A stretch of 41,262 nucleotides of DNA from an uncultured Pseudomonadota bacterium (GCA_950059285.1 CATLTV010000024.1:1-41262); one strand, 5' to 3'; counted from the first letter of the stretch, positions 9,743-26,314 are shown. Numbers and translations are program-made. The notes: generated from the sequence alone by a model not told the origin.

Positions 9743-11775
9743 TGCAAGTGTTTAAACGATCACGTCGTCGTGGTGCCAATCAGGTGATGGGTGTGCTTGT
9801 GTTGCTTTTTGGCCTGGTGGCTTGTGGAGGTAATAACTCCAATGGTTCATCTGAAGATGATGACACCATGGAGATGACATCTACGAACAACGAGAGCATG
9901 TCCACCTGTTCGCCTGCCTGTGAAGAGGGTTCAACCTGTCAGAATGGTACATGTGTCGCTGCATCGGGAAATAACTCTACGCCAATGGTCACAGGGAGTG
10001 CCGTGGGTGCCGAGTGTACGACCAATGAGACATGTGCCGAGGATCTGTGTCTTACCGATGAGAGTATTCCAGGTGGGTATTGCTCAAAGGTGTGCGGCAC
10101 AGGATTGCCAGGCGCAGATGATAGCTGTCCAACGGGTTCAAGCTGCATTCAGATAGGCGATGGTGTGTCTGCATGTCTTGATTCCTGTGGTGCGGATTCG
10201 GAGTGTCGTTCAGGTTATGTATGTGAGGCGGTAGGCAGCGAGTCGGTGTGTTTGCCAATGTGCCAGAGCGATTATGACTGTGGACTTGATGAGGTATGTC
10301 AAAGTGGCAGATGCGAGGTTACCAATGCGGGTGGCACACGTGTAGGAGGTTCCTGCGCAGAGGACAGCACCTGTCAAAGCAGCGTGTGTTTGACCGAGGC
10401 CGATACGGACTGGCCAGGCGGCACATGTGTGGGTGACTGTACAGGCAGCGCCGATGGTAGTTTTTGTGATGGTGTGACCGCAGACTCAGGGTTGTGTATT
10501 AACTTTGATGAGGTGGGTTTGTGCTTCCCCTCATGTACCACGGCGCTTGATTGTCGCAATGGATATGTGTGCTCGGCAGATGATGGCATCGCCAATGAGG
10601 ATGGCTATGGCGTCTGTTTTCCTCACTGTGAGTTTACAGGGTGTGAAGATGGTACAACGTGCGATGTGTCAGGCTTTTGTGTGGAGTCTCAGGTGAATGA
10701 GCCTCAGGAGGTGCTCACCACAAACCTTGGGGTTTATGACCTGAATAACCAGTATTATCAAACACTTGAGTTTGATATTCCTGAAGATGCCGTGAGCTTT
10801 GCGATCACGATGGTCTCCGAAAATGGTGTGACAGTGCCCTCTCTTGATGGGCTTTATGGTCCGACAGGTCGTACGATCTTCAACATTTATGATCCGTTGC
10901 AATCGGCGATGAAGTTCTTTGGTTCAGAGGGTACACCGCTTGGTTTTGTCTATCCCAACACACCGGCGCTCAATGTCAATTCAGGGACGTATACCATGGA
11001 AGTCTCGGCCTATTCGTCATCACAGGTGACGATTTACTTGCATGTGAAGAAAGGTTCAGTGCCACAGATGGAGAAGATGCCACTGACGATGTGGTTCATG
11101 TACAACGATTATCTTGATGCGACGACTGCCCAGACCGATCCCAAGTTCCAGCAGGCCGTCTCGGAGATGCGTGCTATCTATGCTTCGGCAGGGATTGATA
11201 TTTCACCGATTCAATACCGTGATGTGCATGAGGATATTCGTTATGATTACGCCTCTGTCGTGCTTGATGACAGTACATCAGTAGAAGGTATGATCAGCGC
11301 GGCATTTGCCATGGAATCCACACCAGTGGAGGGTGCAAATCTCCTCTTTAATGACCAGCTTTTCCTGGAGGATGGTGGCGTGTTGTATGGTATCTCCGCA
11401 GGGCTTCCTGGTCCTGTTGGTGTGAACAATACGCAGACCTTGGGTGTGTTTGTGGCACTTGATACACATGCTGATCAGAACGGAGAGCTTGACGCCAGTG
11501 AGCTTGGTTCGACCATGGGTCATGAGCTTGGCCACTATTTAGGTCTGTACCATGTGTCTGAGGCCGATGGTTCCTCACACGATCCGTTGAATGATACGCC
11601 CGAGTGTGGTGCGTCTCGTGATGCAAACCGAGATGGGATTCTTTCTGGGGATGAGTGTGATGATGCGGCAGCCTCCAATATGATGTTCTGGACCTCCTCC
11701 GAGTTCCATACACAGAATCAACTCAGCGCAGCTCAAGGTTGGGTGTTACATAGAAACCCTGTGATCACGCAGTAA
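9742..11775 (+). CDS. Cys-rich lipoprotein with metzincin-type metalloprotease domain
   Basis: This is a 677-aa surface lipoprotein. The ATG at 9742 follows GAGGTG by 5 nt. The signal has an Arg-rich start (KRSRRRG) and lipobox LVACGG, then an acidic Ser/Asp/Asn linker. Residues of roughly 50-320 hold many EGF-like or disulphide-rich units (CSPACEEGSTCQNGTC, CGADSECRSGYVC, CQSDYDCGLDEVC). The C-terminal domain carries HELGHYLGLYH at 594-604, the complete HEXXHXXGXXH zinc site, and downstream NMMFW as a likely Met-turn. This points to an M43/pappalysin-like protease, probably acting outside the cell on proteins. The intervening beta-rich region may be a pre-peptidase domain. It is coupled to the preceding HEAT-like lipoprotein and followed by a 75-nt hairpin. 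Confidence 0.88.
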   Translation: MQVFKRSRRRGANQVMGVLVLLFGLVACGGNNSNGSSEDDDTMEMTSTNNESMSTCSPACEEGSTCQNGTCVAASGNNSTPMVTGSAVGAECTTNETCAEDLCLTDESIPGGYCSKVCGTGLPGADDSCPTGSSCIQIGDGVSACLDSCGADSECRSGYVCEAVGSESVCLPMCQSDYDCGLDEVCQSGRCEVTNAGGTRVGGSCAEDSTCQSSVCLTEADTDWPGGTCVGDCTGSADGSFCDGVTADSGLCINFDEVGLCFPSCTTALDCRNGYVCSADDGIANEDGYGVCFPHCEFTGCEDGTTCDVSGFCVESQVNEPQEVLTTNLGVYDLNNQYYQTLEFDIPEDAVSFAITMVSENGVTVPSLDGLYGPTGRTIFNIYDPLQSAMKFFGSEGTPLGFVYPNTPALNVNSGTYTMEVSAYSSSQVTIYLHVKKGSVPQMEKMPLTMWFMYNDYLDATTAQTDPKFQQAVSEMRAIYASAGIDISPIQYRDVHEDIRYDYASVVLDDSTSVEGMISAAFAMESTPVEGANLLFNDQLFLEDGGVLYGISAGLPGPVGVNNTQTLGVFVALDTHADQNGELDASELGSTMGHELGHYLGLYHVSEADGSSHDPLNDTPECGASRDANRDGILSGDECDDAAASNMMFWTSSEFHTQNQLSAAQGWVLHRNPVITQ

Positions 11776-11792
11776 GTTTTGGGTTTCGTTGA

Positions 11793-11867
11793 GCGAGAGT
11801 AAAAAAGAAGAGTGGGCGGCCTGTTGCTTTCAGCAACAGGCCGCCCACTCTTCTTTTTTACTCTCGC
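11793..11867. terminator. Perfect hairpin, 36-bp stem, 3-nt loop
   Basis: The arms 11793-11828 and 11832-11867 are exact reverse complements around the loop TTC. The GC-rich inner stem (GTGGGCGGCCTGTTGC) is followed on the right arm by TTCTTTTTTA. The left arm has the matching A run, so the structure could terminate transcription from either side. It begins 17 bases after the stop of the metalloprotease gene. This is the clearest example of the long-stem terminators in this window. Confidence 0.85.
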
Positions 11868-12020
11868 CAGGATTGGAGCCTGGTAAAGAGATGCTCTGGA
11901 TATGGTTAAACTGTACTCCATCAAAGATTTGAGGCTCGTGTATCAGATCCTTAGAAAACCAAGGTCTTGACCTGTAGGTAGGGTCGTTTATTTTATTAAT
12001 TTTATGAATAAAATCAACAA

Positions 12021-12050
12021 TTTACAATAAATATTTGTGTGTGGCATAAT
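12021..12050 (+). promoter_or_regulatory. Predicted sigma-70-type promoter for the Cys-rich surface protein
   Basis: TTTACA (12021-12026) and CATAAT (12045-12050) are separated by 18 bp in a very AT-rich stretch, about 90 bp before the start codon at 12140. The rest of 11868-12139 holds no gene that I can support. Confidence 0.45.
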
Positions 12051-12139
12051 GTTTGTAGAGTATAGGAAGCAGAACGTGGTTGAGAATCAGCCCATCCATT
12101 CAAGGTTCCCATATGAGCCCAACGCAAGAGGTTAGAGAG

Positions 12140-13318
12140 ATGAAGATCAAGTTATTGCCAGCATTGTTACTTTCGATGTCCACCTTGGTTGCCGCACCTG
12201 CATTTGCCCAGAGCATGGAGGGAGAGTGTAGCGCCGATGCAGATTGTCCGATGGATTACACCTGTGAAGAGATAGGTGCGTATGCCTGCGCATCTCCTCC
12301 TCCCTGTGCCGAGGGTGATGAAGAGTGCATGCAAGAAGAGGTGGAGCCTTGTGAATCAGGCGTGATCATGGTTTGTGTAGCACCTCCACCCGAGCAGTGT
12401 GACCCTGATGCAGCGGATGCCTGTGGCGAAGGTCTGGAGTGTGTGACCTATACCTATGAGCAATGTTCAGGAGGCCGCCCGGATGTGGCTGTATCATGTT
12501 CGGTGACACCTGATGGTGAGGAAGAGTGTGAAGAGAGTCCAGGAAGTGGTGAGCCTGCTGAGGAGCCCTCCTGCATTACAGAGAGTGAGAGCTACTGTGT
12601 GCCGCAGTACTTTGCACCTTGTGAAGAAGATCTTGATTGCGGTGCAGGGTTCCGATGTGTCGACGAGCCAGCGCCTTGCTACGAGACATGTAGCGCAGGT
12701 GGTGGTGTGGATGGTGCAGACATGGAACCAAGCTGTGAAGAGACCTGCGAGGACTCATCTGGCCGCAAGTACTGTGAGCTTATTGAGGTGGAGTGTTCCA
12801 GTGATGCAGATTGTGCGGAAGGTCTTGGTTGTGTGACATTTGAAGAAGCGTACGCCACACCTGATTGTGCAGAACCCTTGCCTGTTGATGAGGATGTTGA
12901 TGGCGGTTCTGGTAGTGGAGAAGATCCTGATGATGGCGGAGAGCCTGACGATGAGCCTGTGGATCACTGTGGAGATAGTGAACCTGTTGAGGTGGAGTCC
13001 AAAAGCTACTGCGTGCCTCCAGAATGGGATCGTTGGGTAGATAGCCCCACATCACCTGGCGAGTATGTGGATTACGATGAAGGTGTGTCCGAGGCGGCAG
13101 GGCGTGGCTCCGAAGCTGGTGGAAGCAATGGAGAAGATGACTGGACGCTTGTGGATAAGCAGGGCCCCTCTGCCGAGTTGGATGGCAGTGGTTCAGCCGG
13201 TGAGGTTGAAGGTGAGTCTGGTGGTTGTCAGACCACAGGCTCGGGAGCTCCTGCGGAAGGTCTTGGTTTGTTGGCGGCGCTGGGTATGATGCTTGGTTTG
13301 CGTCGTCGAAAAAAGTAA
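12140..13318 (+). CDS. Cys-rich secreted protein with MYXO-CTERM-like tail
   Basis: This is a 392-aa exported protein. The ATG at 12140 opens on a signal peptide (MKIKLLPALLLSMSTLVAAP, cleavage after AFA). GAGG lies 8 nt upstream; the frame extends to 12080, but that extension lacks signal character. The mature part is acidic and very Cys-rich, with repeated units such as CSADADCPMDYTC and CEEDLDCGAGFRC, then a Gly/Asp/Glu-rich low-complexity linker (GGSGSGEDPDDGGEPDDEP). The C-terminus has a Cys, about 12 small residues, a hydrophobic segment (LGLLAALGMMLGL) and RRRKK, as in MYXO-CTERM sorting signals. It is therefore probably surface-anchored after processing. The function is unknown. Confidence 0.87.
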   Translation: MKIKLLPALLLSMSTLVAAPAFAQSMEGECSADADCPMDYTCEEIGAYACASPPPCAEGDEECMQEEVEPCESGVIMVCVAPPPEQCDPDAADACGEGLECVTYTYEQCSGGRPDVAVSCSVTPDGEEECEESPGSGEPAEEPSCITESESYCVPQYFAPCEEDLDCGAGFRCVDEPAPCYETCSAGGGVDGADMEPSCEETCEDSSGRKYCELIEVECSSDADCAEGLGCVTFEEAYATPDCAEPLPVDEDVDGGSGSGEDPDDGGEPDDEPVDHCGDSEPVEVESKSYCVPPEWDRWVDSPTSPGEYVDYDEGVSEAAGRGSEAGGSNGEDDWTLVDKQGPSAELDGSGSAGEVEGESGGCQTTGSGAPAEGLGLLAALGMMLGLRRRKK

Positions 13319-13334
13319 GATTTTGAGCAACTAA

Positions 13335-13374
13335 AGAAAAAGCACAGGAGGATTATTTCTCCTGTGTTTTTTTT
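13335..13374 (+). terminator. Rho-independent terminator
   Basis: The stem CACAGGAG/CTCCTGTG has the loop GATTATTT. A run of T follows on the plus strand and an A run precedes it. This is a conventional short terminator for the Cys-rich protein gene ending at 13318, in contrast to the very long hairpins elsewhere. Confidence 0.85.
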
Positions 13375-13425
13375 ATGTGAAGTTGTATTGTGTCATTTGG
13401 ACACTATAAGAACAGGAGGTTATTT

Positions 13426-14013
13426 ATGGCACAGTATGTAGAGCTCTCGAGGGGAAGTTTTCTCGTGCATAATCTATGCACGCAAGAGGAGTGTCTTGAG
13501 TCGATCGAAGCGTGTGAGCGAGAGGGATTTTCCGAAGCCCCCGTGACGACCAATCAGGGGCCTGTGATGATGTCGCATATTCGTGATAACGAGCGCGTCA
13601 TGATCGATGATGCGGCGTGGGCATCCCGTCTGTATGAACGTTTAAAACCCTTTATTCCAGAGCACTTGGCAACTATTCCCTACAAGGATCGAGCGTATAA
13701 AGCGGTGGGGTTAAACGAGCGTTTGAGGTTTTATCGTTATCAACCAGGGCAGAGTTTCAAGATGCATCGGGACGGGTATTTTCAGCGCGCCGATTCCATG
13801 GAGCGAAGTTTTCTGACGGTGTTGCTCTATTTGAATCAGTCGATGACAGGTGGTGAGACGCTTCTTTATGTGGGTGATACGATTGATGTGACGCCAGAAA
13901 CGGGTCAGATATTGTGTTTCAGGCATGAGTTATTGCATGAGGCTGTACCTGTGGAGACAGGCCGCAAGTATGTGTTGCGTACAGATGTGATGTATGCGCC
14001 AGAGCCTCTGTGA
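13426..14013 (+). CDS. 2OG-Fe(II) oxygenase, prolyl-4-hydroxylase-like
   Basis: This is a 195-aa non-haem iron dioxygenase that should use 2-oxoglutarate and O2 to hydroxylate a substrate, possibly a protein. The ATG at 13426 has AGGAGG about 6 nt upstream. The double-stranded beta-helix core carries the iron ligands H114 and D116 (MHRDGYF) and H171 (LLHEAVPV). K181 (GRKYVLRTD), ten residues after the distal His, is the usual 2-oxoglutarate carboxylate contact in prolyl 4-hydroxylases. RFYRYQPGQSF before the first His is also typical. No signal peptide is present, so it is cytoplasmic. It stands alone and converges with the operon to its right. The substrate is unknown. Confidence 0.9.
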   Translation: MAQYVELSRGSFLVHNLCTQEECLESIEACEREGFSEAPVTTNQGPVMMSHIRDNERVMIDDAAWASRLYERLKPFIPEHLATIPYKDRAYKAVGLNERLRFYRYQPGQSFKMHRDGYFQRADSMERSFLTVLLYLNQSMTGGETLLYVGDTIDVTPETGQILCFRHELLHEAVPVETGRKYVLRTDVMYAPEPL

Positions 14014-14023
14014 TGAGGTGAAA

Positions 14024-14057
14024 AGTTCACTGTAAAAAGTTTACACCACTGATAAAA
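14024..14057 (+). repeat. Dispersed palindromic repeat, copy B
   Basis: The element begins AGTTCACTGTAAAAAG and ends TTTACACCACTGATAAAA. It is nearly identical to the reverse complement of 71-105 and shares its core with 25641-25664. It sits in the 47-bp gap between two convergent genes, 3' to both. A terminator or REP-like role is possible. Confidence 0.6.
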
Positions 14058-14060
14058 TGT

Positions 14061-15242
14061 TCACATGTGTTTGAGTGTGTCGTAGGTGAGCGTGATGTGC
14101 ATGTGAGGGTCTTGTGCTCTGAGTGATGCGTGGAGCTGGTCAAGCTGCGGTGTGCCTTGTGTGTGTGGTACGAGGCAATGGATTGAGAGGTGGCCAGGCA
14201 TGGGTTGAGAGATGTGATGATTGAGGACGTGGTGTGTGGGGTCATTGAGGACGCGTAACCAGAGGACCGCCGAACGTTGTTGGTTGTTTGAGGTGTAAAA
14301 GGTGTGTAGTGCGCGTCCCGTGAGATTTTGAAAGCTTTGTCCATGGTGGTCACAGTGGGGGCAGGTGTGTGCGTTGATGACGTGTGCGACGGCATCTCCT
14401 GTGACATAGCGGGTCAGCGGCATGGCGCGATTGCGTAGCGTGGTGACGACAAGTGCATTGTCTGTCATGCGTTCGACAATGGAGCTTCCAGGGGGGATGT
14501 GCCAGATCTCCTGAGGTGAATGTGGGCATTGAATGGCGACGGGGCCAATCTCGGAGAGGCCGTAGCTGTTGATGAGCAAGGTGTCTGGCAGGTGGTGGTG
14601 AAGAGCGTCGATAAGATCGGGGTGAAGATATCCAGAGGTGGAGATGATGATCTCGACATGGGGTAATTTTGTGGGGTGTTGAAGTAAGCTTTTTAACTCA
14701 AATGGAGTTAGTGATAAGATATTGGTTTTAAATGAGTTTATTGTTTTTATGGCCTCTTCTACAGAGGTGCTGTCATGGCGTAGAATGGTGGCATCCCAGA
14801 GTGGAGCTGGTTCGGAGAATGTGTGTGCTTTGGTGGCGATGGAGAGGTAGAGGATATTGGGTTTGGAGGGGAGAGGAAAGTGTGACAGCGAGAGGGCGTA
14901 TTCAAGGTGAAGGTAGTAGTGTGCAAGGGACCAGGCGCACATCCAGACATCGACAGGGTCACCCGTGGTGCCCGAGGTTCGTCCAAGGTATCCGCCATGT
15001 GTTATGGATTTGAGATCGCCGATAAAAGCACCTGCGTGTTGTTGAAGCATCGTGCGCGTGATCAGAGGTGCTTGTGTGGGTATGGGGTTTTGCGGATCAA
15101 GGTCGTGGAGTTGAAACCAGTGTGACTGTTGTCGTGCGTTGATGATTTGGGGGTGAAGCGTGGTTGAGCGCACTTCGGGAGGGGTGGAACGCCACCAGTG
15201 TGTGTAGGCAGAGAGTTGTTCGTGGTAGGTATCGTAGTGCAT
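14061..15242 (-). CDS. Adenylate-forming enzyme, PaaK (phenylacetate-CoA ligase)-like
   Basis: This is a 393-aa AMP-binding enzyme predicted to activate a carboxylic acid as acyl-adenylate. The phosphate loop is GRTSGTTGDPVDVW at 87-100. A central YGLSEIGP, then LTRYVTGDAV, match conserved motifs of the superfamily. CPHCDHHGQSFQNLTGR matches the PaaK/CapK-type Cys-containing segment before the GR hinge. It is a little shorter than PaaK (about 430 aa). The C-terminal subdomain is short, and I cannot place the usual catalytic Lys with confidence. This is the last gene of the MoxR-vWA operon, 17 nt after the preceding stop. A CoA ligase role is known for the family. A role with the ATPase complex, such as modifying a protein or small molecule, is inference. 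Confidence 0.85.
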   Translation of the reverse strand: MHYDTYHEQLSAYTHWWRSTPPEVRSTTLHPQIINARQQSHWFQLHDLDPQNPIPTQAPLITRTMLQQHAGAFIGDLKSITHGGYLGRTSGTTGDPVDVWMCAWSLAHYYLHLEYALSLSHFPLPSKPNILYLSIATKAHTFSEPAPLWDATILRHDSTSVEEAIKTINSFKTNILSLTPFELKSLLQHPTKLPHVEIIISTSGYLHPDLIDALHHHLPDTLLINSYGLSEIGPVAIQCPHSPQEIWHIPPGSSIVERMTDNALVVTTLRNRAMPLTRYVTGDAVAHVINAHTCPHCDHHGQSFQNLTGRALHTFYTSNNQQRSAVLWLRVLNDPTHHVLNHHISQPMPGHLSIHCLVPHTQGTPQLDQLHASLRAQDPHMHITLTYDTLKHM

Positions 15243-15259
15243 TGATAAACAGACTTGAA

Positions 15260-15865
15260 TTATGTGCTGGATGAACCACTTACGGCAGTATTGTAGGTTT
15301 TTTCTTCGTATTTTTTGGCGAGCTGTTGGACGCGGTCTTGCCAGGTGTCGGCGCGAAGTTCGGAGGTTTTTGCGATGGTTTTGGCGTCTTCAAGGGTCAT
15401 ATGTTGAAGTGCAGTGTTGGTGCGGGTGCAAAAAATGGCGAGCATACTTGTGGTGAGTTCGTGGAGTCCGAGTTCAGTGGTGACATCAAAGGGTGTGGAG
15501 ATGTCCTGAATAAGGTGTGGGTCATTGAGGAGAAAGCGGGTGATGATGACGGCCTGTGTGGGGCGGTTTGCTGCGTTGATGTGGGGAGATTGTACGGCTC
15601 GAAGGAGAGGTTCAAGCGTGGTGGGGGGTTCAAGCATAAGGATGATGCAGGCAGCGCGTACACAGGCGTCAAGGAGGTTGATATTTTGCCACAATGATGC
15701 GGTGTGAATGAGTGATTCTTCAAGGGCTTTGGCCTCGTGACGAGAGAGGGAGTCGTCAAGTTCCTGAAGCAGTGAGGCGGTGGCTTTTCGACCGAAGCTT
15801 GTCATGGTGAGGGTGAGCTTCTGGTGTGTGAGTGCGTTAATGTGGTCTTGTTTTTCTTTATTCAC
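15260..15865 (-). CDS. Unknown helical protein of the MoxR-vWA operon
   Basis: The family is not recognised. I choose the GTG at 15865 (201 aa, starting VNKEKQDHINALTHQ), which has GAGG 8 nt upstream and overlaps the end of the preceding gene by 8 nt. The frame continues to 15913, but that start would overlap the upstream gene by more than 50 nt. The protein is almost wholly alpha-helical (LLQELDDSLSRHEAKALEES, CVRAACIILMLEPPTTLEPL), with a HEAT or ARM look. There is no signal peptide, membrane helix or catalytic motif. It probably serves as a structural subunit of the complex encoded by the operon. Confidence 0.78.
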   Translation of the reverse strand: MNKEKQDHINALTHQKLTLTMTSFGRKATASLLQELDDSLSRHEAKALEESLIHTASLWQNINLLDACVRAACIILMLEPPTTLEPLLRAVQSPHINAANRPTQAVIITRFLLNDPHLIQDISTPFDVTTELGLHELTTSMLAIFCTRTNTALQHMTLEDAKTIAKTSELRADTWQDRVQQLAKKYEEKTYNTAVSGSSST

Positions 15866-16418
15866 CGTAGGGCCTCGCTGGACGATGTTTTGTATCAATG
15901 GCTTGTTTTGCACGGATCAAGGCTTGTTGAAATTCTTCGCGGCGTTGGTTGAGCTGTTGGAGGACGTGATCCTGTTCCTTGAGGAGGTAGCTTGATGTGT
16001 CGGGGCGTTCATCTTCGATGTGGATGTTGAGTTGAGCGGCGACCTGTCTAAGGAGCGCTTCATGGTTGAGAGGATCGGAGAGCTCGTCGTTGCTGATAAA
16101 TCGTGAAGAGAGTCGTTCAATGGCGCTCATGAGTGCGGGAATGGAGAGTTCAGGGAGAGGGCCAAGGTAGTCCTGAATGGTGTCATCGCTGAGTGTGGCG
16201 AGCAGGATGTAAATGATGCGTGTGTTGATGGTGGTGTGTTGTTGGAGTGCAAGCGAGGTGTTGGCTTCAGCGAGCATCTGTTCCGAGGCGTTGAGTCGTC
16301 GCAGGAGGATGAAGATGTCGTCAAGTGATGGTGGTCGTTTGAGCGAAGATTGATAGGATGCGAAGATACGCATCGCATCGGAGAGAGGGAGTTGTTTGGG
16401 GGTATCAGAGGTTGTCAT
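15858..16418 (-). CDS. Unknown helical protein of the MoxR-vWA operon
   Basis: A 186-aa protein of no recognised family. It is helical throughout: PSLDDIFILLRRLNASEQML, then INTRIIYILLATLSDDTIQDY, then a long charged C-terminal helix (KEQDHVLQQLNQRREEFQQA) that may form a coiled coil. It has no export signal or catalytic motif. It starts 64 nt after the vWA gene stops; that gap is very AT-rich and could hold an internal promoter. The start has AAAGG about 12 nt upstream. The next gene overlaps its end, so the two are likely made together. Confidence 0.78.
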   Translation of the reverse strand: MTTSDTPKQLPLSDAMRIFASYQSSLKRPPSLDDIFILLRRLNASEQMLAEANTSLALQQHTTINTRIIYILLATLSDDTIQDYLGPLPELSIPALMSAIERLSSRFISNDELSDPLNHEALLRQVAAQLNIHIEDERPDTSSYLLKEQDHVLQQLNQRREEFQQALIRAKQAIDTKHRPARPYGE

Positions 16419-16482
16419 GTGAAAATAACCTTTATATTTTAGTGTGTTAAGTTATTGTTTTTATTTGTTTATTATTAAAATG

Positions 16483-18276
16483 CTAAGAGTTTATTTTTTG
16501 CGTAAATTTGCGTGTGGCGACATCGGCGCAGGCGTTGACGACATCTTGCCAGGTACGGCAACCAAAGACGGACCAGTCTTCGGGGAGGTTGTAGCCGACG
16601 CTTGATGCGTTGCCATTGAGGATGACAGTGCCACCGCCTTTGAATTCATTTTGGACACGAGCCAGAATGGAGGTGACCTGTTCAAGAGGATAGATGCGTG
16701 GGTTTTGGAACCAGGTATCGATGCCATCATCGGAGAGGATTACGGTGTGCACCACATTGGATCGATCCTGGTGGGAGTTGAGCGCGGTTTCCCAGTGTTT
16801 TACGGGGAACTGTGTACCTCCTCGGATGCTGTGGCATAGGGTGGAGAGGACGGTTTCCTTGGATGTGCTGAATGTGTTGGTAGAGAGGAGGTTGCGTTCA
16901 TCATAGCTCCAGATGGTGACACGCACCGCGCCGCCCTGTCGAAGGACGCTCAGGGCAAAGATGAACGCACCCAGGGCGATGTGACTCATGGAGCGGTGTG
17001 GGTCGGGCATACTCCCCGAGGTGTCGACGTAGATGTCGAGGTCAATGGGGAAGGGTTCGGCCCCGAGGGGTTCTGGATCAGAGCCATATTCCCAGGCGAC
17101 CGTGTTGACGCCAGGGATGGGATGTCCGCTACGAATGGAGGACTGGAGCCAGTCGATCTCCTCGATGGGGTCGCCAAGGGACCATTCTTTGAGTGATTCG
17201 GGGTAGAGTTCGGAGTGTCCGCCACGGTCGGCAGTGAAGCTGACGAGGTGGGCATTGGCCATGGATTCGTAGTAGTTGATGATGATCTCGGTGGGGGAGA
17301 TGATCATGCCAGCAGCGGTGCCATTGATCATATCGGATGCGAGGCGAGGGGAGTAATCGGGGAATGTGGGTGACTTGCTGCCAGTGAGGGATGCTTTGGA
17401 TTGTTTGGCGAGGATGCGTTTGGCCTGTTCTGCGGCGTTGTCCATGGACATCATACCACCAGATCGGAGCCATTTGCGAAGCTCGTCGGCGTCTTCAGGA
17501 GTGGCGGCCACGAGGTTATCGAGGCTCTGGGGTTGGGAGTTTTGAGGTGATGGATGTTCACTGTCAGCGTTCGCCAACAACCTACACGCCAATGTGACGT
17601 AAGGGATCAAATCAGCTCCTCGCCTGCCCTCGCCGTGTAGCTCATAAATGGCGCACAGCGCTTCGGAAAAAACGTTATATTTTTCAAAGCTTTGAGTGAA
17701 TCCAACGAACATCGGTTCGCAATTCCAGAGGCGTTCCATTGCGCCAAGCATGAGGCCAAAGGAGAAGCTTTCGATGGGTTGGTTTTTACAGATGCGCTTG
17801 TAGATTTCTGGGCAAGGCAGGTTGTGTTGGGTGACGAGGATGGTGTTGATGAGGAGGTCGAGGGCGATATTGACGTAACCAGGGAGTTTGTTTTTATCCA
17901 TGGAGACCTGTCGTGCAGCAGCGAGATATCGCATCTGATTGGTGAGTCCTGCGGGCGCGACGGCGTGGTGTCCAATTTCGTGTGCCATGAAGGTGAAGAG
18001 GAATTCATCGACATGGAGTGAGCGCATGTGTTTGAGGTTGAGGTTGGTTTCAAATGTGAGCGCGTTGATGCTGGCGAGGCTTTCTTGTGCGTAGTAGGCG
18101 GCCTCTTCCTCGGATGTTTCAATCATGAAAGGGTCGCGCAAAAAGAGTTCATCAAGCCAGATTTGTCCTGCGCGTTGCCAGAGTACGCGCTCCGAGTCGG
18201 AGAGGTCGCGGGTTTTTGGCCGTGAGGAAGAGGAGGTTGATGTACCTGTGGTGTGATGTGATGGCAGGTGGCTCAT
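16483..18276 (-). CDS. vWA protein with zincin-like (DUF2201-type) N-terminal domain
   Basis: This is a 597-aa partner of the MoxR ATPase. The N-terminal half resembles the putative metallopeptidase domain that often precedes vWA-like domains in DUF2201 proteins. It has HEIGHH at 99-104, an HEXXH-type motif inside FTFMAHEIGHHAVAPAG. The C-terminal half is a vWA domain with a complete MIDAS: D418-T-S420-G-S422, then GGTQFP (Thr) and LSDDGIDTW (Asp). It should bind a divalent metal and a protein ligand. MoxR plus vWA pairs act as chaperones or remodellers that load metals or mature complexes (established for RavA-ViaA and methanol dehydrogenase MoxR). Whether the zincin motif is catalytic is unknown. 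The gene starts 5 nt after the preceding stop. Confidence 0.88.
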   Translation of the reverse strand: MSHLPSHHTTGTSTSSSSRPKTRDLSDSERVLWQRAGQIWLDELFLRDPFMIETSEEEAAYYAQESLASINALTFETNLNLKHMRSLHVDEFLFTFMAHEIGHHAVAPAGLTNQMRYLAAARQVSMDKNKLPGYVNIALDLLINTILVTQHNLPCPEIYKRICKNQPIESFSFGLMLGAMERLWNCEPMFVGFTQSFEKYNVFSEALCAIYELHGEGRRGADLIPYVTLACRLLANADSEHPSPQNSQPQSLDNLVAATPEDADELRKWLRSGGMMSMDNAAEQAKRILAKQSKASLTGSKSPTFPDYSPRLASDMINGTAAGMIISPTEIIINYYESMANAHLVSFTADRGGHSELYPESLKEWSLGDPIEEIDWLQSSIRSGHPIPGVNTVAWEYGSDPEPLGAEPFPIDLDIYVDTSGSMPDPHRSMSHIALGAFIFALSVLRQGGAVRVTIWSYDERNLLSTNTFSTSKETVLSTLCHSIRGGTQFPVKHWETALNSHQDRSNVVHTVILSDDGIDTWFQNPRIYPLEQVTSILARVQNEFKGGGTVILNGNASSVGYNLPEDWSVFGCRTWQDVVNACADVATRKFTQKINS

Positions 18277-18281
18277 GATGT

Positions 18282-19172
18282 TTACTTTGAATCAGTGAGG
18301 AAGAGGGCGACCGAGCCATCGAGGGTGAGTCCTGCGAGGGTGTGTGGGCCGACCTGAAACAGAGTGGGGACGACAGAGGGTTGGGGGGAAGGTGTGGTGT
18401 TGGGTTGTTGAAGGTGAAGTGGTTCTGTGAGCCTTGGTTCGGGAGTGTAGCCAAGCAATGCGTTGCTGTGTGTGGGGATGATGGTGTGAATGTCTTCAGG
18501 TTGATTGTAGGCGATGAGGTTGTGTTTGGGATCCATGCCAAGTTTGCTGACAAAGTGCCAGGGTTGTTTACCAAAGGGGTCAATCAAAGCCAGTGGAGTG
18601 AGCTTATGAGTGTCCCATGGGAGGGAGAGCCAGTGCGTGCCCTTGTGTGAGAGCGATGTGGAGTCAAGATGATGGAAATATTCAGGATTTTTTATTGTAC
18701 GTGAAGGTGTGCTTGATGAGGTTTCGCCCGAGATGAGGTAGTGAATGCACTGTGTCAGGGCGTGAGCATCGAGGGTGACGTTGGGTTGTAAGAGTTGTGC
18801 TGAGAGGTAGTCATCCAGTGAGGAGAGCTGGGAAGGATCGGGCAAGGCGGCGACGAAGTTAAAGAGATTGACGGAGGTGATGGGAGTGATGGGAGCAGGT
18901 GCATGTTGGACGAGTCGGATGAAGAGAGTCCAGCGAGTGGCGCTTGCGGCTTCATCAAACCAGCCAAGACGCATGGCAAGTTTGAGGAAGCGAATTTGGC
19001 GAGGCTGTTCGAGGATATCGTGTTGCCACAGGGGGACGAGATCCTTGATGAAGGCGCGCGTGATTCTGGGGTTCCAGTGAGGGACGACATCCTGGAGTGA
19101 GTGCCAGAGTGCGGCGTGAAGCTCGGAGGTCTGGATCAGGGCCTGGTTTAGTTTTTCTTGCTTTGACTTCAT
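18282..19172 (-). CDS. Unknown protein of the MoxR-vWA operon
   Basis: A 296-aa protein lying between the ATPase and vWA genes. Residues 1-170 are helical (ALWHSLQDVVPHWNPRITRA, then RQIRFLKLAMRLGWFDEAAS). The C-terminal 110 residues look beta-rich (WLSLPWDTHKLTPLALIDPF, then HTLAGLTLDGSVALFLTDSK), a pattern that could be a few propeller-like strands. Beta-propeller partners are known in some MoxR-vWA ternary systems, so this may be the equivalent third component, but the match is not strong enough to name. There is no export signal. It starts 57 nt after the ATPase stop and is followed by the vWA gene after 5 nt. Confidence 0.78.
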   Translation of the reverse strand: MKSKQEKLNQALIQTSELHAALWHSLQDVVPHWNPRITRAFIKDLVPLWQHDILEQPRQIRFLKLAMRLGWFDEAASATRWTLFIRLVQHAPAPITPITSVNLFNFVAALPDPSQLSSLDDYLSAQLLQPNVTLDAHALTQCIHYLISGETSSSTPSRTIKNPEYFHHLDSTSLSHKGTHWLSLPWDTHKLTPLALIDPFGKQPWHFVSKLGMDPKHNLIAYNQPEDIHTIIPTHSNALLGYTPEPRLTEPLHLQQPNTTPSPQPSVVPTLFQVGPHTLAGLTLDGSVALFLTDSK

Positions 19173-19229
19173 GGTGATAATGCGCCGCGTGTGTGGTTTA
19201 TCCTGTTGACTTCTAGTGTTTATTTCGGT

Positions 19230-20807
19230 TTATGAGTCTTGAGCTTCAAGCCATGAGGCGTAGGATTGGTAGCGCATGTAGTAGTATTTCAGGGCGAGTA
19301 CGGATTCGTAGAGGAACGCGTCAAGTTCGTAGCGTTTGGCGAGTTTTTGAATGAGTTTTTGAATGTGAGACATGCGCTTTCGCGTGTCTTTGAGGGAGAG
19401 TCCATCGAGGCCCTTGTTGAAGGTTGTCTCAATTTTTGCGACCTCATCATCCATATCACGGCCCGAGGTTTCAAAGCGGTCCATGGCGAGGTCAAAGAGG
19501 TTGCGAATCCAGCCCACGCGGTCCATGCGATAGATGCGGTTATCGGGGTTTTGGAAGAAGGGGGAACGCAGGTTAGGGTGTAGTTTTTCGTGCAAGATGA
19601 AAGGGATAATTTGTCTTACATCTTCGACACTTACTTCGGATTCATTGCGGAACCAGGCGAGTGCTTTTGCAAAGGTGAGCAAGGTCATGAAGGAGCGTAC
19701 CGAGAGGCCCTGATGAGTTTGTGTGCAGAGGTGTTGAGTTTTGTCGCGAGGGCAATCCTGGTTGCAAATTTCGCTAATTTTAACGCCTGAGAGACGAGCT
19801 GTGTCCTTGGATTTGTACTCAAAGATGGGGGAGACGAGGTCACAGAAGTCAAACTGGGACATGAAGTAACGAATGATACGCAGGACCGAGGGGGGAATGG
19901 TGACGGTCATGACATCCTTGGCCATGAGGTCGAGTTCTTCAGGCGTGAAGATCAGCCCTGCGGGGACGACCTCATCGGGTTCAATGCCACGTTCGATACG
20001 GTGCAGGAGCTCATCAAGGAACTGGCTGTTGAACTGGAGGGCCTTGACGACGATGTCGATGCGGTCTTTGAGTGCTTCAATGACCTGGAAGGTGCCGCCG
20101 CCAGCGTCATCGTTGGCGGTGAGGAACCATGCAGAGGGTGGTGAGTAGAGGATCTGGTCAAAGATTTCGGCGTAACCGCTGCCCATGAGTGTGAGCAGTG
20201 AAGATTGTGTGCGGGTGGGGATGCGGTTGTATTCGTCGATGATTTTGACGCGCATACCGATCCATTTGCGCCAGGCGACATTGAGGTCATCGGGGCTTTC
20301 TGCCTTGAGGAGGTCGCCAGGCATGGGAGAGCCGAGCAGGTCGGTGACGGTCATCTGGGGTTGTCCATGTCGGATGGCCTGATTGAGTTCAAGTTTGGTG
20401 TAGCCAGCGAGGATGCCAAGGAGTGTTGCTGTGGCGGTCTTTCCCTTGCCAGGGCCGCCGATGAGGAGCGCACGTTTGCGGACCACAAAGTTGAGCAATG
20501 GGAGCAAGACGTAGGAGCAAAAGGAGTGTTCCGAGGGGAGTGTGACAGAGGAGCCTTCACGAAAGGAGATGGTGAGGTCATCGTGGCGACCGTAGGCGAT
20601 GTCATAATGGGGAGAGATGATCGCGTGGTTGACAATCCAGTAGTATGCCTTGCGTGCTTTTTCGCGAAGTGCAGGGGCATGTGAGACAGGTGTTTCGATG
20701 CCTTCTTCATTGAGGAGTGCAGCGAGTTCCACGAGGTTTGGCGCTGCGCCTTCCTGAGAAGGGAGCGTGGGAGAGGCAGAGATATGTCCGTAACGTTGGC
20801 TGCTCAT
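19230..20807 (-). CDS. MoxR-family AAA+ ATPase
   Basis: A 525-aa AAA+ ATPase. The Walker A is GGPGKGKT at 117-124 and the Walker B is VKIIDEYNRIP at about 187-197, the MoxR form of IDE-x-NR. Sensor 1 is FLTANDD (N232) and the arginine finger region is EALKDRID (R249). The protein is longer than classical MoxR (about 330 aa), with an N-terminal helical extension and a large C-terminal region. A Cys-containing insertion (CNQDCPRDKTQHLC), which might bind a metal, precedes that region. All ATPase residues look intact. It overlaps the upstream gene by ATGA, which implies translational coupling. It is the motor of the operon's predicted remodelling complex. Confidence 0.93.
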   Translation of the reverse strand: MSSQRYGHISASPTLPSQEGAAPNLVELAALLNEEGIETPVSHAPALREKARKAYYWIVNHAIISPHYDIAYGRHDDLTISFREGSSVTLPSEHSFCSYVLLPLLNFVVRKRALLIGGPGKGKTATATLLGILAGYTKLELNQAIRHGQPQMTVTDLLGSPMPGDLLKAESPDDLNVAWRKWIGMRVKIIDEYNRIPTRTQSSLLTLMGSGYAEIFDQILYSPPSAWFLTANDDAGGGTFQVIEALKDRIDIVVKALQFNSQFLDELLHRIERGIEPDEVVPAGLIFTPEELDLMAKDVMTVTIPPSVLRIIRYFMSQFDFCDLVSPIFEYKSKDTARLSGVKISEICNQDCPRDKTQHLCTQTHQGLSVRSFMTLLTFAKALAWFRNESEVSVEDVRQIIPFILHEKLHPNLRSPFFQNPDNRIYRMDRVGWIRNLFDLAMDRFETSGRDMDDEVAKIETTFNKGLDGLSLKDTRKRMSHIQKLIQKLAKRYELDAFLYESVLALKYYYMRYQSYASWLEAQDS

Positions 20808-21496
20808 GGGTGTTGTGATCCTGTCTGTTGAAGATGAAGGTGAAGGTGTTCAAGTGCGCTGCGAAGGAGTGGGGATAGGTGTTCGGGGTGGACGGAGAGC
20901 AGCCATGTGGGCAGGGCGAGCTGCTTCATCATGGCGAGTAAGTGCTCGGGGTGGTCGGATGCGTGTATGGCCTGGAGCTGGTGCATCTGAGCGTGAAGGT
21001 TTTGCAAGTCCTGTTCGAGCTGTCGTGCGTGTGAGATGGCGCTTTCGTATACAGATTCAACAGGTTGATTTCTATATTCTTTTAAGGTGTTTTGCGCCTC
21101 TTCCACGGAGGTGCTGTGTAAAATTTTGGCAAGCTCTTCGGGTGAGCGTATGTAGATGCCCTGTTCAAAAGGGAGGGGCTGTGTGCTGGGGTCAAGCCAG
21201 ACGTGATTTTTATGGATGTCTGGGTTGTGCTGATCTTCCTGTGGAGGAGAGGATGTGTGGACCTCAAGGGGATGATCCTCATGTTCAAAGATGGCAAAGA
21301 TGCCAAGTTCGCTACCACAGCCGTAATCCCAGGAGTCGGTGTGTTGTGCGATCTCGTGGTCGGGCGTGTCGTCCTGGGGGAGTTTTGCGAGGAAGGTGAC
21401 AGTGTGTGCAGTGCAATGTAGGGACTGTCTTGATTTCAAGGCATGAATCAGTGAGGAAGGTCCAAGACTGCGGGTATAGCGAATGGAAGAAGTCAT
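20804..21496 (-). CDS. Unknown His-rich protein, first gene of the MoxR-vWA operon
   Basis: A 230-aa protein of no recognised family. Residues 1-130 look mixed alpha/beta with many His and Asp (HEIAQHTDSWDYGCGSELGI, EHEDHPLEVHTSSPPQEDQH). Residues of about 130-190 form a long Gln/Glu-rich helix with coiled-coil character (ARQLEQDLQNLHAQMHQLQA). A helical C-terminus ends in a His/Leu repeat (LEHLHLHLQQTGSQHP). The His-rich parts could bind metal, which would suit a MoxR-vWA metal-insertion role, but that is inference. The ATG at 21496 has no clear ribosome binding site. Its stop overlaps the ATPase start (ATGA). Confidence 0.78.
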   Translation of the reverse strand: MTSSIRYTRSLGPSSLIHALKSRQSLHCTAHTVTFLAKLPQDDTPDHEIAQHTDSWDYGCGSELGIFAIFEHEDHPLEVHTSSPPQEDQHNPDIHKNHVWLDPSTQPLPFEQGIYIRSPEELAKILHSTSVEEAQNTLKEYRNQPVESVYESAISHARQLEQDLQNLHAQMHQLQAIHASDHPEHLLAMMKQLALPTWLLSVHPEHLSPLLRSALEHLHLHLQQTGSQHP

Positions 21497-21570: not shown

Positions 21571-21623
21571 ATAAAAGAGCGAGCACTTAGTGTTTTTATA
21601 ACACTAAGTGCTCGCTCTTTTAT
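21571..21623. terminator. Perfect hairpin, 24-bp stem (first of a tandem pair)
   Basis: The arms 21571-21594 and 21600-21623 are exact reverse complements with loop TTTAT. It lies between the end of the minus-strand MYXO-CTERM-like gene and the start of the MoxR-vWA operon. It would be the second hairpin met by a transcript leaving the former gene. The arms end in ATAAAAG/CTTTTAT. Confidence 0.72.
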
Positions 21624-21703: not shown

Positions 21704-22540
21704 TTATGAGGTACGACGTCGGTACAGGAGGCCCACAATGGAGAAGAACAGTACCATCAGAGGGGCGGAGTCAGGTGTGGATGGTGCAAGTTCGGCGCTT
21801 GAGCATGCGACTCCCTGAGTAGATTCACTATCGTCTTCGCCCTGGTCAGTTTTAGACCAGTAGCCCATATCAAGATAATCTTCACAGCAAGCTTGATGAC
21901 CAGCGTCGTATGATTCCCAGTTGCCATCGTCGGGTTTATCGTAGCCCTGATCTGAGCCACTGTCAGGTTCTACAAAATCCATGTCTTCTGTAACAGGAGC
22001 CATATCAGGAGCCATATCTTCATCAAGAGATGGTCCCATATCAGCGCTCATATCAGATCCCATATCGACAGGGTTCATATCAGGGACTGGATCGTAGAAG
22101 AATCTGGAGATGATCTGCCCCGAGTGTACGACGTCGTAGGTGATGCCAGGTGTGAGCGCAGTTTGAACTTCAAAAGCCTGAGGGTGTCCGCATTGGTTGG
22201 CAAAGATTGAATCTTCCTGGAACTCTCCCATCAGGTCAGTGCCATCAAGGGCGAGTAGTTTGAGGTCTTCAGGAAGGATGGGTTCGTTCTCGGGGTCAGA
22301 ACACATGCCTGGAGCGCAACACTGGACGGTGCAACTTGCGAGCAGGAGGGGTTGCTGGTCGATATCAGTCCAGATAGGGACATGACTTGGTGTGGACAGC
22401 GTGATGGCATTGCAGCCAGCGTCCACGACAGTGCCTTCACACTCAAATGAGCAGGTTGCAAAGGCATCATGTGCAATACACAGAGATGCTGCCGAGAGGA
22501 GTATAAATATTAGGTGATGTGCACACATTTTGAACGCCAT
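21704..22540 (-). CDS. Secreted protein with Asp/Met-rich linker and MYXO-CTERM-like tail
   Basis: A 278-aa exported protein of unknown function. The ATG at 22540 (or a second Met four codons on) opens on a signal peptide (FILLSAASLCIAHDAFA). The mature N-terminal domain has paired Cys (CSFECEGTVVDAGC, LLASCTVQCCAPGMC) and is beta-rich. Next comes a low-complexity linker of Asp, Met and Pro (DMGSDMSADMGPSLDEDMAP) and a second Cys pair. The C-terminus has Cys, a Ser/Pro stretch, a hydrophobic helix (PLMVLFFSIVGLLY) and RRRTS, as in MYXO-CTERM tails. It is probably surface-displayed after processing. It is monocistronic, with tandem hairpins downstream. Confidence 0.85.
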   Translation of the reverse strand: MAFKMCAHHLIFILLSAASLCIAHDAFATCSFECEGTVVDAGCNAITLSTPSHVPIWTDIDQQPLLLASCTVQCCAPGMCSDPENEPILPEDLKLLALDGTDLMGEFQEDSIFANQCGHPQAFEVQTALTPGITYDVVHSGQIISRFFYDPVPDMNPVDMGSDMSADMGPSLDEDMAPDMAPVTEDMDFVEPDSGSDQGYDKPDDGNWESYDAGHQACCEDYLDMGYWSKTDQGEDDSESTQGVACSSAELAPSTPDSAPLMVLFFSIVGLLYRRRTS

Positions 22541-22661: not shown

Positions 22662-23735
22662 CTAGTTATACTCTGTTCCACCTTTCCTCAGCAGGTAGTC
22701 GTCACTGACACTTTTGAGCTGCACTCGCCCGATTTCAGGATCGCGGCGCTCCTGTTGTGTACGGACTACAACACCTTCACGGATATGTGCTTCGGTGCCT
22801 GAAACAGACTCCTTGCCCGAGGTGAGTTCGAGCATTTTTGCCTTGTCAAATGGACCTCTCCAGAGCACAGGGACACGTTCAAAACCATGCGTTGTGCAAA
22901 ACGCATCAAGTTCATCGTCGTTGAGGTAGCGCCCTTCAGGATCGGTCGGGCCATGGATAAAGACGTCGAACACACGGAACATGTGTGTACCGCGTGTCTT
23001 TTGTCCGTAGGAGAGGTCCTGGACGCCAGCACCAAAGACTTCGCCGAGGATAAACAGTGGATGTTCCGTGTCAGCGAAGCGCTCTTCAATGTGAAGAGCA
23101 CGCGCGACCTGGAGGTAGAGGTTGTGACTGTTTGCCTCGGCATCTGGTTTAAACGCGAGTCCCTTGTGGCCAAGCCCCTTGGAGGCGACGACAAGCTGTC
23201 CATAATCAGGGTGTGCCATGTCTTTTGTGACCATACCAAGCTGGCACCATGTGCCATGTAGCTTTTCAGTGATGACCACGGGTTCGCCAGGTTCGAGTAC
23301 CTCGGGGTAACGTTTAAACGCCTCGATGTCGTAGCGAATACAACGATCCAGACCCGCGCCATAGAGTTCGCCGTTCATGTAAGAGGGGACTATTGGTTCG
23401 TACTTGGTGATGCCAAGGATATCGGTGACATCCTGTCCCTTGTGCCATTCCGGGCGAGCTGCGTAGCAGATGCCCTGAGACAGAACACCGCGCAAACGCA
23501 TGGCGCGTACGCGGTTTTTGGCGCTCCCTGCGAGTTTTCCCACGAGGCCAAGTTCTTCCAGCACGTTTTCGGGGACGATGGAAGCTTCGGGGATATACGC
23601 AGCGAGGTCACCTGTACAAAACTGGCCTTTGGGGACGATGCTGAGGTAGTCACCTACCTGTGCAAGTTCAAGGCGATCAGCGTTTGGATGGGGTGAGATT
23701 TTGAGTTCTTCCACTGTGACTTTAAACGTGGACAT
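22662..23735 (-). CDS. ATP-dependent RNA ligase, Rnl2/DraRnl-like
   Basis: A 357-aa covalent nucleotidyltransferase. The ATG at 23735 has GAGGTC just upstream; the frame runs on to 23807, but that extension has no support. Residues 1-100 resemble the N-terminal OB-like domain of Deinococcus-type RNA ligases (SPHPNADRLELAQVGDY, then PKGQFCTGDLAAYIPE). Motif I is EKLHGTW with the adenylated Lys K158. Later motifs are GEVFGAG (E232), FRVFDVF, EGVVVR (E320) and QLKS (K341). All residues needed for ligation are present. Known relatives seal 3'-OH/5'-phosphate nicks in RNA. The gene stands alone, with no obvious partner nuclease or kinase beside it, so the RNA target is unknown. Confidence 0.88.
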   Translation of the reverse strand: MSTFKVTVEELKISPHPNADRLELAQVGDYLSIVPKGQFCTGDLAAYIPEASIVPENVLEELGLVGKLAGSAKNRVRAMRLRGVLSQGICYAARPEWHKGQDVTDILGITKYEPIVPSYMNGELYGAGLDRCIRYDIEAFKRYPEVLEPGEPVVITEKLHGTWCQLGMVTKDMAHPDYGQLVVASKGLGHKGLAFKPDAEANSHNLYLQVARALHIEERFADTEHPLFILGEVFGAGVQDLSYGQKTRGTHMFRVFDVFIHGPTDPEGRYLNDDELDAFCTTHGFERVPVLWRGPFDKAKMLELTSGKESVSGTEAHIREGVVVRTQQERRDPEIGRVQLKSVSDDYLLRKGGTEYN

Positions 23736-23937
23736 GATGACCTCGCGTGTAGGGTTGAAATGAGCGTGCATAATACAACATGTGTGTGTTGTGCGCCTGT
23801 CTCTCAAGGGTGATGTGGCATGATTTTATTTCATGACATCAAGAAACCTCTTATTTTGAAGCAACAAGACGATACGCCTGCCCGATAACCTTGTGACATT
23901 TCAGCCCCTGGAGGGGGATAACAAAGAAGAGGTTATT

Positions 23938-25678: not shown

Positions 25679-26314
25679 TTATGGGGCGAGCAGCAGGCTC
25701 CATGATTGTTGTTCAGGGTGCCAACGTATGACAAAGAGTGTGGCGTTGGGGATGCGAGAGAAGGCGCTTTGTTGATCGGGGAGCAGTGTGCCAAGGACAT
25801 GTCTTACGACACCGCCATGGCTGGACATGGCGATGGTTTCACCAGCGTGTTTTTCCTTCCATGTATTGATCAAAGCGCAGGCACGTTCCACGACTTCAGC
25901 GCGTGACTCGCCATCTTTGAATCGGAGGTCTTTGGCCTCGGGGTGTCCAGGATCACCAAGCCAGAGGTCAATAAAGCGTTGGCCCATGAGCTCGATTGAT
26001 TCATCGCGAGTGAGTCCTTCAACCTGTCCCATGCGAGCTTCGCGAAGATCGGGAGTGGTGGTGACAGGGATATCAAAAACATCGGCGACAGCCTGTGCGG
26101 TGTGTGATGCACGTTTCAGATCACTGGAGTAAATGTGCGAGATGGGGAAGTCGTCTGCAAGCGATTGGCACTGGTCAGCGAGCGCCTGTGCTTGTTGTTG
26201 GCCGACTTCATTGAGAGGAATGTCAATGTGGCCCTGAAAGCGGCGATCCACATTCCACTGTGTTTGTCCGTGTCGAAAGACGCAAAGGGTGAGTGCTTGA
26301 GATGTCTGTGTCAT
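25679..26314 (-). CDS. Histidine phosphatase family protein (phosphoglycerate mutase-like)
   Basis: A 211-aa phosphatase of the histidine-phosphate branch. The ATG at 26314 begins MTQTSQALTLCVFRHGQTQW, with the phosphorylated His at H15 in the RHG motif. The catalytic acid lies in LREARMGQVEG, and the second His in SSHGGVVRH. FQGHIDIPLNEVG is typical of cofactor-independent phosphatases such as the GpmB and CobC groups. All catalytic residues look intact. The substrate cannot be assigned: a sugar phosphate, nucleotide or alpha-ribazole phosphate are all possible. The frame is open to 26413, but the extension is not supported by homology. There is no strong ribosome binding site. It converges with the TPR gene. 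Confidence 0.9.
   Translation of the reverse strand: MTQTSQALTLCVFRHGQTQWNVDRRFQGHIDIPLNEVGQQQAQALADQCQSLADDFPISHIYSSDLKRASHTAQAVADVFDIPVTTTPDLREARMGQVEGLTRDESIELMGQRFIDLWLGDPGHPEAKDLRFKDGESRAEVVERACALINTWKEKHAGETIAMSSHGGVVRHVLGTLLPDQQSAFSRIPNATLFVIRWHPEQQSWSLLLAP

What the first reader, a model, noticed from the sequence alone, without database searches (positions are those of the whole stretch)
14061..21496. Seven-gene MoxR-vWA operon with four unrecognised partners
Tightly spaced minus-strand genes encode a His-rich protein, a long MoxR ATPase, a helical plus beta-rich protein, a vWA protein with intact MIDAS and an N-terminal HEXXH-type motif, two helical proteins and a PaaK-like enzyme. 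MoxR-vWA pairs are known chaperone or metal-insertion machines, and some take part in three-component systems with a beta-propeller partner. The partners here match none that I know. The ATGA overlaps and short gaps argue for one complex. Possible roles are maturation of an unknown metalloenzyme, or a regulated conflict or defence system.
Basis: partly seen in the sequence, partly recalled or inferred. Interest (0 to 1): 0.68.

Follow-up and report, generated by a model that had tools for sequence, protein, structure and literature searches.

The report
Widespread uncharacterised MoxR–vWA–PaaK operon
The seven genes are a divergent, myxobacterial version of an undescribed operon found across bacteria and Asgard archaea, in which a ring-shaped ATP-driven motor is nearly always paired with a peptidase-like adaptor protein and usually with a carboxylate-activating enzyme; many relatives add genes for making NAD, so it probably matures or remodels a dedicated enzyme or protein rather than being any known metal-insertion or defence system.

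Summary
The seven minus-strand genes are real. They belong to an operon family that I could not find described.

In order, five components recur: a MoxR ATPase (F), a helical plus beta protein (X), a vWA protein with an N-terminal HExxHH domain (D), a small helical protein (Y) and a PaaK-like adenylate-forming enzyme (A). One genome scan returned 454 MoxR relatives. I examined 93 loci, from Asgard archaea and at least ten bacterial phyla. All five components were found in 48 of 65 loci with enough flank; 54 loci keep the order F-X-D-Y-A.

Window genes F, D, C (=Y) and A are homologous to family members. G is probably the upstream gene of a Myxococcota subclade. E sits in the X slot without detectable similarity. 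B is an orphan.

New facts: HExxHH in all 75 long D proteins; a conserved C-terminal Glu (54/61) or Arg-Glu (46/61) on Y; NAD-salvage genes pnuC and/or nadR beside the operon in 32 of 65 loci; a radical-SAM gene in 10.

Best reading: a NorQD/CbbQO-like remodelling machine dedicated to its co-encoded partners, most likely the adenylating enzyme. The client and chemistry are inferred. It matches none of the four described MoxR-vWA conflict systems and was not found in phage, plasmid or viral collections.

The parts
20804..21496 (-). Gene G (230 aa), first gene; probable divergent homologue of the gene just upstream of MoxR in the Myxococcota subclade (L022, L025, L026, L027)
   Evidence: Profile of the four positional genes scores G 9.0 bits against a maximum of 5.0 in 2000 shuffles; best non-self phmmer hit of G is that gene in L026, E=0.4. 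No match by single sequence in 57 class genomes
19230..20807 (-). Gene F, MoxR-type AAA+ ATPase (525 aa) with a Cys/His cluster C-x3-C-P-x2-K-x2-H-x-C-like (CNQDCPRDKTQHLC) in the C-terminal (lid) half
   Evidence: AAA_lid_2 1.6e-7; 45-51% identity to 12 class relatives; Walker A and B in 93/93; Cys cluster in 13/93
18282..19172 (-). Gene E (296 aa), in the X slot between MoxR and vWA; sequence homology to X not detectable
   Evidence: Position and length only; profile score inside the shuffled range; no convincing homologue in 284 phylum genomes
16483..18276 (-). Gene D, vWA protein (597 aa): N-terminal HExxHH metallopeptidase-like domain, low-confidence linker (~240-306), C-terminal vWA with MIDAS
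   Evidence: H99/E100/H103/H104, N136/D140/N144, E181, D418/S420/S422, D516 invariant; AlphaFold2 model's best PDB matches are NorD vWA in NorQD, E=2e-4
15858..16418 (-). Gene C (186 aa), member of family Y; ends in ...PYGE
   Evidence: Profile built without it scores 17.9 bits against a maximum of 7.5 in 1000 shuffles; family ends in E in 54/61 and RE in 46/61
15260..15865 (-). Gene B (about 201 aa, GTG start overlapping C; the ORF list gives an upstream GTG at 15913), orphan protein
   Evidence: No family, no homologue; overlap seen
14061..15242 (-). Gene A (393 aa), PaaK-like adenylate-forming enzyme; keeps TSGTTG, YGLSE and RYVTGD motifs but lacks the K-V-x2-Y tail of most relatives
   Evidence: AMP-binding 5e-8; nearest NCBIfam model DVU_1553 family; member of the A family; tail compared
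21575..21619 (.). 20-bp perfect palindrome, terminator-like, between the operon and the upstream gene 21704-22540

Best explanation
A dedicated enzyme-remodelling (maturase or activase) machine that works like NorQ-NorD and CbbQ-CbbO. F forms an AAA+ ring. D docks on it through its vWA domain, and ATP turnover pulls or twists the linker between the vWA and the N-terminal HExxHH domain. The client is encoded in the same operon, most likely the PaaK-like adenylating enzyme A, acting with the small protein Y (gene C) and X (gene E slot). Y's conserved acidic C-terminus is presented to the machine, either as the sixth ligand of D's MIDAS metal or as the end that A or D acts on. The pathway probably draws on NAD or an NAD precursor, at least in the many hosts that add PnuC and NadR, and in some it involves a radical-SAM step. 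Shown: gene order and co-inheritance, invariant HExxHH and MIDAS residues, vWA resemblance to NorD, conserved Y tail, recurrent NAD-salvage neighbours. Inferred: complex formation, identity of the client, tail-MIDAS contact, any chemistry.
For: Five-gene order in 54 loci, 48 of 65 well-flanked loci complete. F and D trees co-vary, Spearman 0.90 against a permuted maximum of 0.22. D's model matches NorD vWA of the NorQD complex best; in NorQD, ATP-driven twisting of the NorD linker is proposed to enable metal insertion and MIDAS is a proposed client site (PMC13036017). In known MoxR-vWA pairs the client is often encoded beside the pair (own knowledge), and A is the only recognisable enzyme common to most copies besides F and D. 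Y tail E in 54/61, RE in 46/61. PnuC/NadR in 32/65 loci.
Against: No complex or client has been demonstrated. A was not found in 15 of 65 loci, including members of the window's own subclade (L025, L026, L032, L033). The window's A lacks the usual C-terminal lysine tail, so it may not be an active ligase. D's HExxHH domain is invariant, which a pure adaptor would not need. The window's genome has no PnuC by Pfam search. E is not alignable to X.
Confidence: 0.4

Rival explanations
1. An ATP-dependent processing protease: F unfolds or feeds, and the zincin-like N-terminal domain of D cuts a client (Y's tail, A, or an unknown protein).
For: HExxHH in 75/75 long D proteins; E181 and N136/D140/N144 invariant; two D homologues match Peptidase_M48, best 2.4e-5; remote similarity to DUF2201; Y has a conserved C-terminus.
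Against: No protease activity is known to me for DUF2201-type relatives; the third zinc ligand was not established; no cleavage product or sorting motif was identified.
Confidence: 0.2
2. Metal insertion into an unknown metalloenzyme, as the first reader proposed (NorQD-like in substrate as well as mechanism).
For: Nearest structural relatives include metal-insertion chaperones; Cys/His cluster in F of the window's subclade; radical-SAM genes inside some operons.
Against: No metalloenzyme is always present; radical-SAM in only 10/65 loci at high score; the Cys cluster is missing from most of the family; PaaK-like enzymes are not known to need metal insertion.
Confidence: 0.15
3. A regulated conflict or defence system, related to the MoxR-vWA ternary systems.
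For: Patchy presence (13 of 57 class genomes); NAD salvage could restore NAD after NAD-depleting immunity; orphan accessory genes in the window.
Against: No PADLOC match; none of the VMAP, iSTAND, FtsH or beta-propeller third components of PMC7159879 in Pfam scans; absent from phage, plasmid and viral collections; F is about 50% identical across phyla and no effector domain was recognised.
Confidence: 0.12
4. Part of a biosynthetic pathway in which Y is a carrier or precursor protein: A adenylates its C-terminal carboxylate (or a small acid to be attached), radical-SAM or other enzymes tailor it, D releases it.
For: Conserved Arg-Glu C-terminus of Y; radical-SAM, an aminotransferase-like gene (L033, L084), or Asn-synthase-, glycosyltransferase- and deacetylase-like genes (L031) seen in some copies.
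Against: Tailoring genes differ between loci and are usually absent; some copies, including the window, lack A's presumed catalytic-lysine tail.
Confidence: 0.13

Closest known systems
NorQ-NorD (MoxR-vWA pair for nitric oxide reductase; PMC13036017, PMC9976466)
   Same: MoxR AAA+ plus separate vWA protein of similar size (NorD 69 kDa) with N-terminal domain, linker and MIDAS; D's model matches NorD vWA best
   Different: D's N-terminal domain carries HExxHH; extra conserved X, Y and PaaK-like genes; no nitric oxide reductase gene among the window operon proteins or recurrent neighbours
DUF2201 (PF13203/PF09967, COG3864) predicted metal-dependent peptidase-vWA proteins
   Same: HExxH then N-x3-D-x3-N motif and C-terminal vWA; hhalign E=2.9e-5 (vWA part) and 5.9e-4 (N-terminal part; reversed control 0.16)
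   Different: No D protein scanned matched the Pfam model; D has a longer insert after HExxH, and comes with X, Y and A
MoxR-vWA ternary conflict systems: VMAP, iSTAND, FtsH, beta-propeller (PMC7159879)
   Same: MoxR plus vWA core with extra components in one operon
   Different: None of the defining third components recognised
DVU_1553 family AMP-dependent CoA ligase / PaaK
   Same: A-family enzymes match along the ANL core (PDB 9s3l 1.3e-27)
   Different: Far below the equivalog cut-off (41.6 against 300 bits for the window copy)
RavA-ViaA
   Same: MoxR plus vWA pair (own knowledge)
   Different: Not compared in detail; its known partners are not among the operon proteins

Membership tests
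MoxR AAA+ ATPase (F) | Walker A/B, sensor 1, Arg finger, AAA_lid_2 | tested here: met
   the AAA_3 model itself is below cut-off (21.5 of 27 bits)
vWA co-chaperone (D) | vWA fold with MIDAS DxSxS...T...D | tested here: met
NorQ-NorD / CbbQ-CbbO metal-insertion or activase systems | known client enzyme (NOR, Rubisco) encoded alongside | tested here: not met
   no such gene among the seven window proteins or the recurrent neighbours
NorQ-NorD / CbbQ-CbbO metal-insertion or activase systems | vWA finger inserted in the AAA+ pore | not testable with these tools
   needs a complex model or structure
DUF2201 family | passes PF13203 model | tested here: not met
   no member of A4 matched at 0.01; no match in own genome
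DUF2201 family | HExxH...N-x3-D-x3-N plus vWA architecture | tested here: met
   (remote similarity)
MoxR-vWA ternary conflict systems | VMAP, inactive STAND, FtsH or vWA-fused beta-propeller third component | tested here: not met
   Pfam at E<=1 on all seven proteins, definitions from PMC7159879
PaaK-like ANL ligases (A) | ANL core motifs A3, A5, A7 | tested here: met
PaaK-like ANL ligases (A) | C-terminal catalytic lysine (K-V-x2-Y region) | tested here: not met
   missing in the window copy, present in most relatives; that this is the catalytic lysine is inferred from the ANL family
X family (gene E) | sequence homology to X | tested here: inconclusive
   same slot and length, no sequence signal
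Y family (gene C) | matches Y profile built without it | tested here: met
   17.9 bits, above all 1000 shuffles

The most novel reading that the evidence does not exclude
An ATP-powered protein-tail processing system: the PaaK-like enzyme activates the C-terminal Arg-Glu carboxylate of the small protein Y (or a ligand for it), while the MoxR ring drives the vWA-metallopeptidase D to bind, cut or load that tail. I know of no described system that combines an AAA+ ring, a vWA-zincin and an adenylating enzyme in this way.
Probability: 0.1. Interest if true: 0.85.

Novelty: new variant of a known kind. Interest (0 to 1): 0.6.

Why it matters
MoxR-vWA machines have few known clients. Here is one conserved from Asgard archaea to Mycobacterium and Pseudomonas, with a fixed set of partners, a peptidase-like vWA protein, an enzyme that may be its client, and a recurrent genomic link to NAD salvage. 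Several carriers are named species or genera represented in the genome collection (Hahella, Marinobacter, Massilia, Chitinimonas), so the client question can be tested directly.

Tried and rejected
Pfam, NCBIfam, PADLOC and PHROGs on single window proteins gave little beyond AMP-binding and AAA_lid_2. Single-sequence searches for E, G and B found no convincing homologue. Testing E against the whole X profile and subclade profiles failed, so I do not claim E is X. B as a second Y copy: score inside the shuffled range. RNA ligase (22662-23807) and 2OG oxygenase (13390-14013) as system members: not recurrent at other loci. X against PDB by sequence and by fold: no significant match. Y against PDB: none. 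Literature searches for MoxR with PaaK, PnuC, NadR, AMP-binding or radical SAM: no relevant paper. Searches of plasmids, phages and viral contigs: none. The greedy ORF calling was misleading in GC-rich genomes and was replaced by profile-anchored calling. The E-value 4e-16 for gene C and hhalign 99.6% include the window sequence in the model; I rely on the leave-out test.

Full report
Observation. The seven minus-strand ORFs are present at the stated coordinates with the stated tight spacing; a strong palindrome at 21575-21619 marks the boundary with the upstream gene. The window is one whole contig of a 6.6-Mb draft genome. It is probably Myxococcota: genome G042, in the same class, holds a contig identical in length and match coordinates to CAINDO010000263.1, 'uncultured Myxococcales bacterium'.

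Family searches on the single proteins recognise only F (AAA_lid_2, weak AAA_3) and A (AMP-binding, nearest NCBIfam model DVU_1553). The other proteins have no family.

Conservation. F has orthologues at 45-51% identity in 12 other genomes of the class (13 of 57 with the window's own). A pattern scan of GTDB genomes with the F alignment found 454 relatives; the best 80 lie in records named Helarchaeota, Sigynarchaeota, Lokiarchaeota, Planctomycetota, Spirochaetes, Chloroflexi, Acidobacteria, Verrucomicrobia, Gemmatimonas, Actinobacteria (including Mycobacterium persicum), Proteobacteria, Myxococcales/Deltaproteobacteria and others. Anchoring on F, iterative profiles show the same partners in order: X (~330 aa), D (vWA, ~590 aa), Y (~195 aa), A (~450 aa). 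Of 65 loci with at least 9 kb downstream, D is found in 61, X in 60, Y in 53, A in 50, all five in 48; 54 loci in all have F<X<D<Y<A on one strand. Trees of F and D co-vary (Spearman 0.90; 500 permutations at most 0.22).

Placing the window genes. D and A join the family profiles. C joins Y in a leave-out test (17.9 bits against a maximum of 7.5 in 1000 shuffles). G matches a profile of the gene directly upstream of MoxR in L022, L025, L026 and L027 (9.0 bits against a maximum of 5.0 in 2000 shuffles), with matching motif order. That is modest but positionally supported evidence. E is in the X slot with similar length, but neither the global nor the subclade X profile recognises it. B has no relative. 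The F tree puts the window with a divergent, mostly Myxococcota subclade (L022, L025-L027, L031-L033, L047; support 0.999, midpoint-rooted). A Cys/His cluster in the C-terminal half of F (CNQDCPRDKTQHLC in the window) was found in 13 of 93 copies; it is absent from the bulk of the family.

Anatomy. D has an HExxHH motif in 75/75 long copies, invariant N136/D140/N144 and E181, and an intact MIDAS. Its AlphaFold2 model (mean pLDDT 76.8) has a low-confidence linker at about 240-306 between the N-terminal and vWA parts. Best PDB fold matches are NorD vWA domains of the NorQD complex (E=2e-4), followed by many other vWA domains. DUF2201 proteins from relatives share the HExxH...N-x3-D-x3-N motif and vWA at remote-homology level. 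X is a very confident model (pLDDT 96.1; helical N-terminal part, beta-rich C-terminal part) without a significant PDB match; the weak hits are largely beta-propellers. Y ends in Glu in 54/61 and Arg-Glu in 46/61 complete copies, against scattered last residues in X, D and A; the window's C ends PYGE. A keeps ANL motifs; most copies carry a C-terminal K-V-x2-Y that I take to be the catalytic-lysine motif, which the window copy lacks.

Neighbours. pnuC (PF04973, 1.6e-47) and nadR (PF13521, 3.6e-37) occur next to the operon in 32/65 loci, mostly directly after A or before F on the same strand, across several phyla. A radical-SAM gene of one family is in 10/65, in several loci between D and Y. 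A few loci carry other tailoring-type genes. The window's genome has no PnuC by Pfam search.

Mechanism. In NorQD, the MoxR ring acts through a vWA finger in its pore, and twisting of the NorD linker is proposed to open the client (PMC13036017). I infer the same mechanical role for F and D. The client is most likely co-encoded; A is the only recognisable enzyme common to most copies besides F and D, and Y's conserved acidic tail is a natural MIDAS ligand or activated carboxylate. This is inference. The invariant HExxHH leaves a peptidase role open.

Novelty. The four described MoxR-vWA ternary systems (PMC7159879) have other third components. No paper in the searched library links MoxR to PaaK, PnuC or NadR; the library is open-access only, so absence there is not proof. 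I rate it a new variant of a known kind: the motor and adaptor are known kinds, while the assembly, its partners and its neighbours are, as far as I could find, undescribed.

Noticed in passing
window 26000-27000: GC skew of the + strand switches from about +0.1 to +0.4 to about -0.3 near 26.5 kb, largely independent of gene direction; possibly a replichore switch point.
   Followed up: partly
window 29659-32118 (+): MurF-like ligase fused to a complete alanine racemase in one 819-aa protein.
   Followed up: partly
window 22662-23807 (-): RNA ligase (PF09414) with PHA02142 OB-fold domain, one gene away from the operon; not recurrent at other MoxR loci.
   Followed up: partly
window 13390-14013 (+): 2OG-Fe(II) oxygenase that also matches the Pox_C4_C10 model (3.6e-8), convergent with the operon.
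   Followed up: no
window 39997-40902 (-): ADP-ribosylglycohydrolase (PF03747, 3.5e-60).
   Followed up: no
L028 (G002) 11248-17595: Second vWA-Y pair after the PaaK gene in a complete genome of the same family: F-X-D-Y-A-D'-Y'.
   Followed up: partly
L031, between D and Y: Asparagine-synthase-like, glycosyltransferase-like and PIG-L deacetylase-like genes inside the operon region (read by eye from the sequences).
   Followed up: no
L033 and L084/L087/L100: Shared extra pair after Y or A: a radical-SAM gene and an aminotransferase-like protein (by eye), in Myxococcota and Mycobacterium; no Pfam match for the latter.
   Followed up: partly
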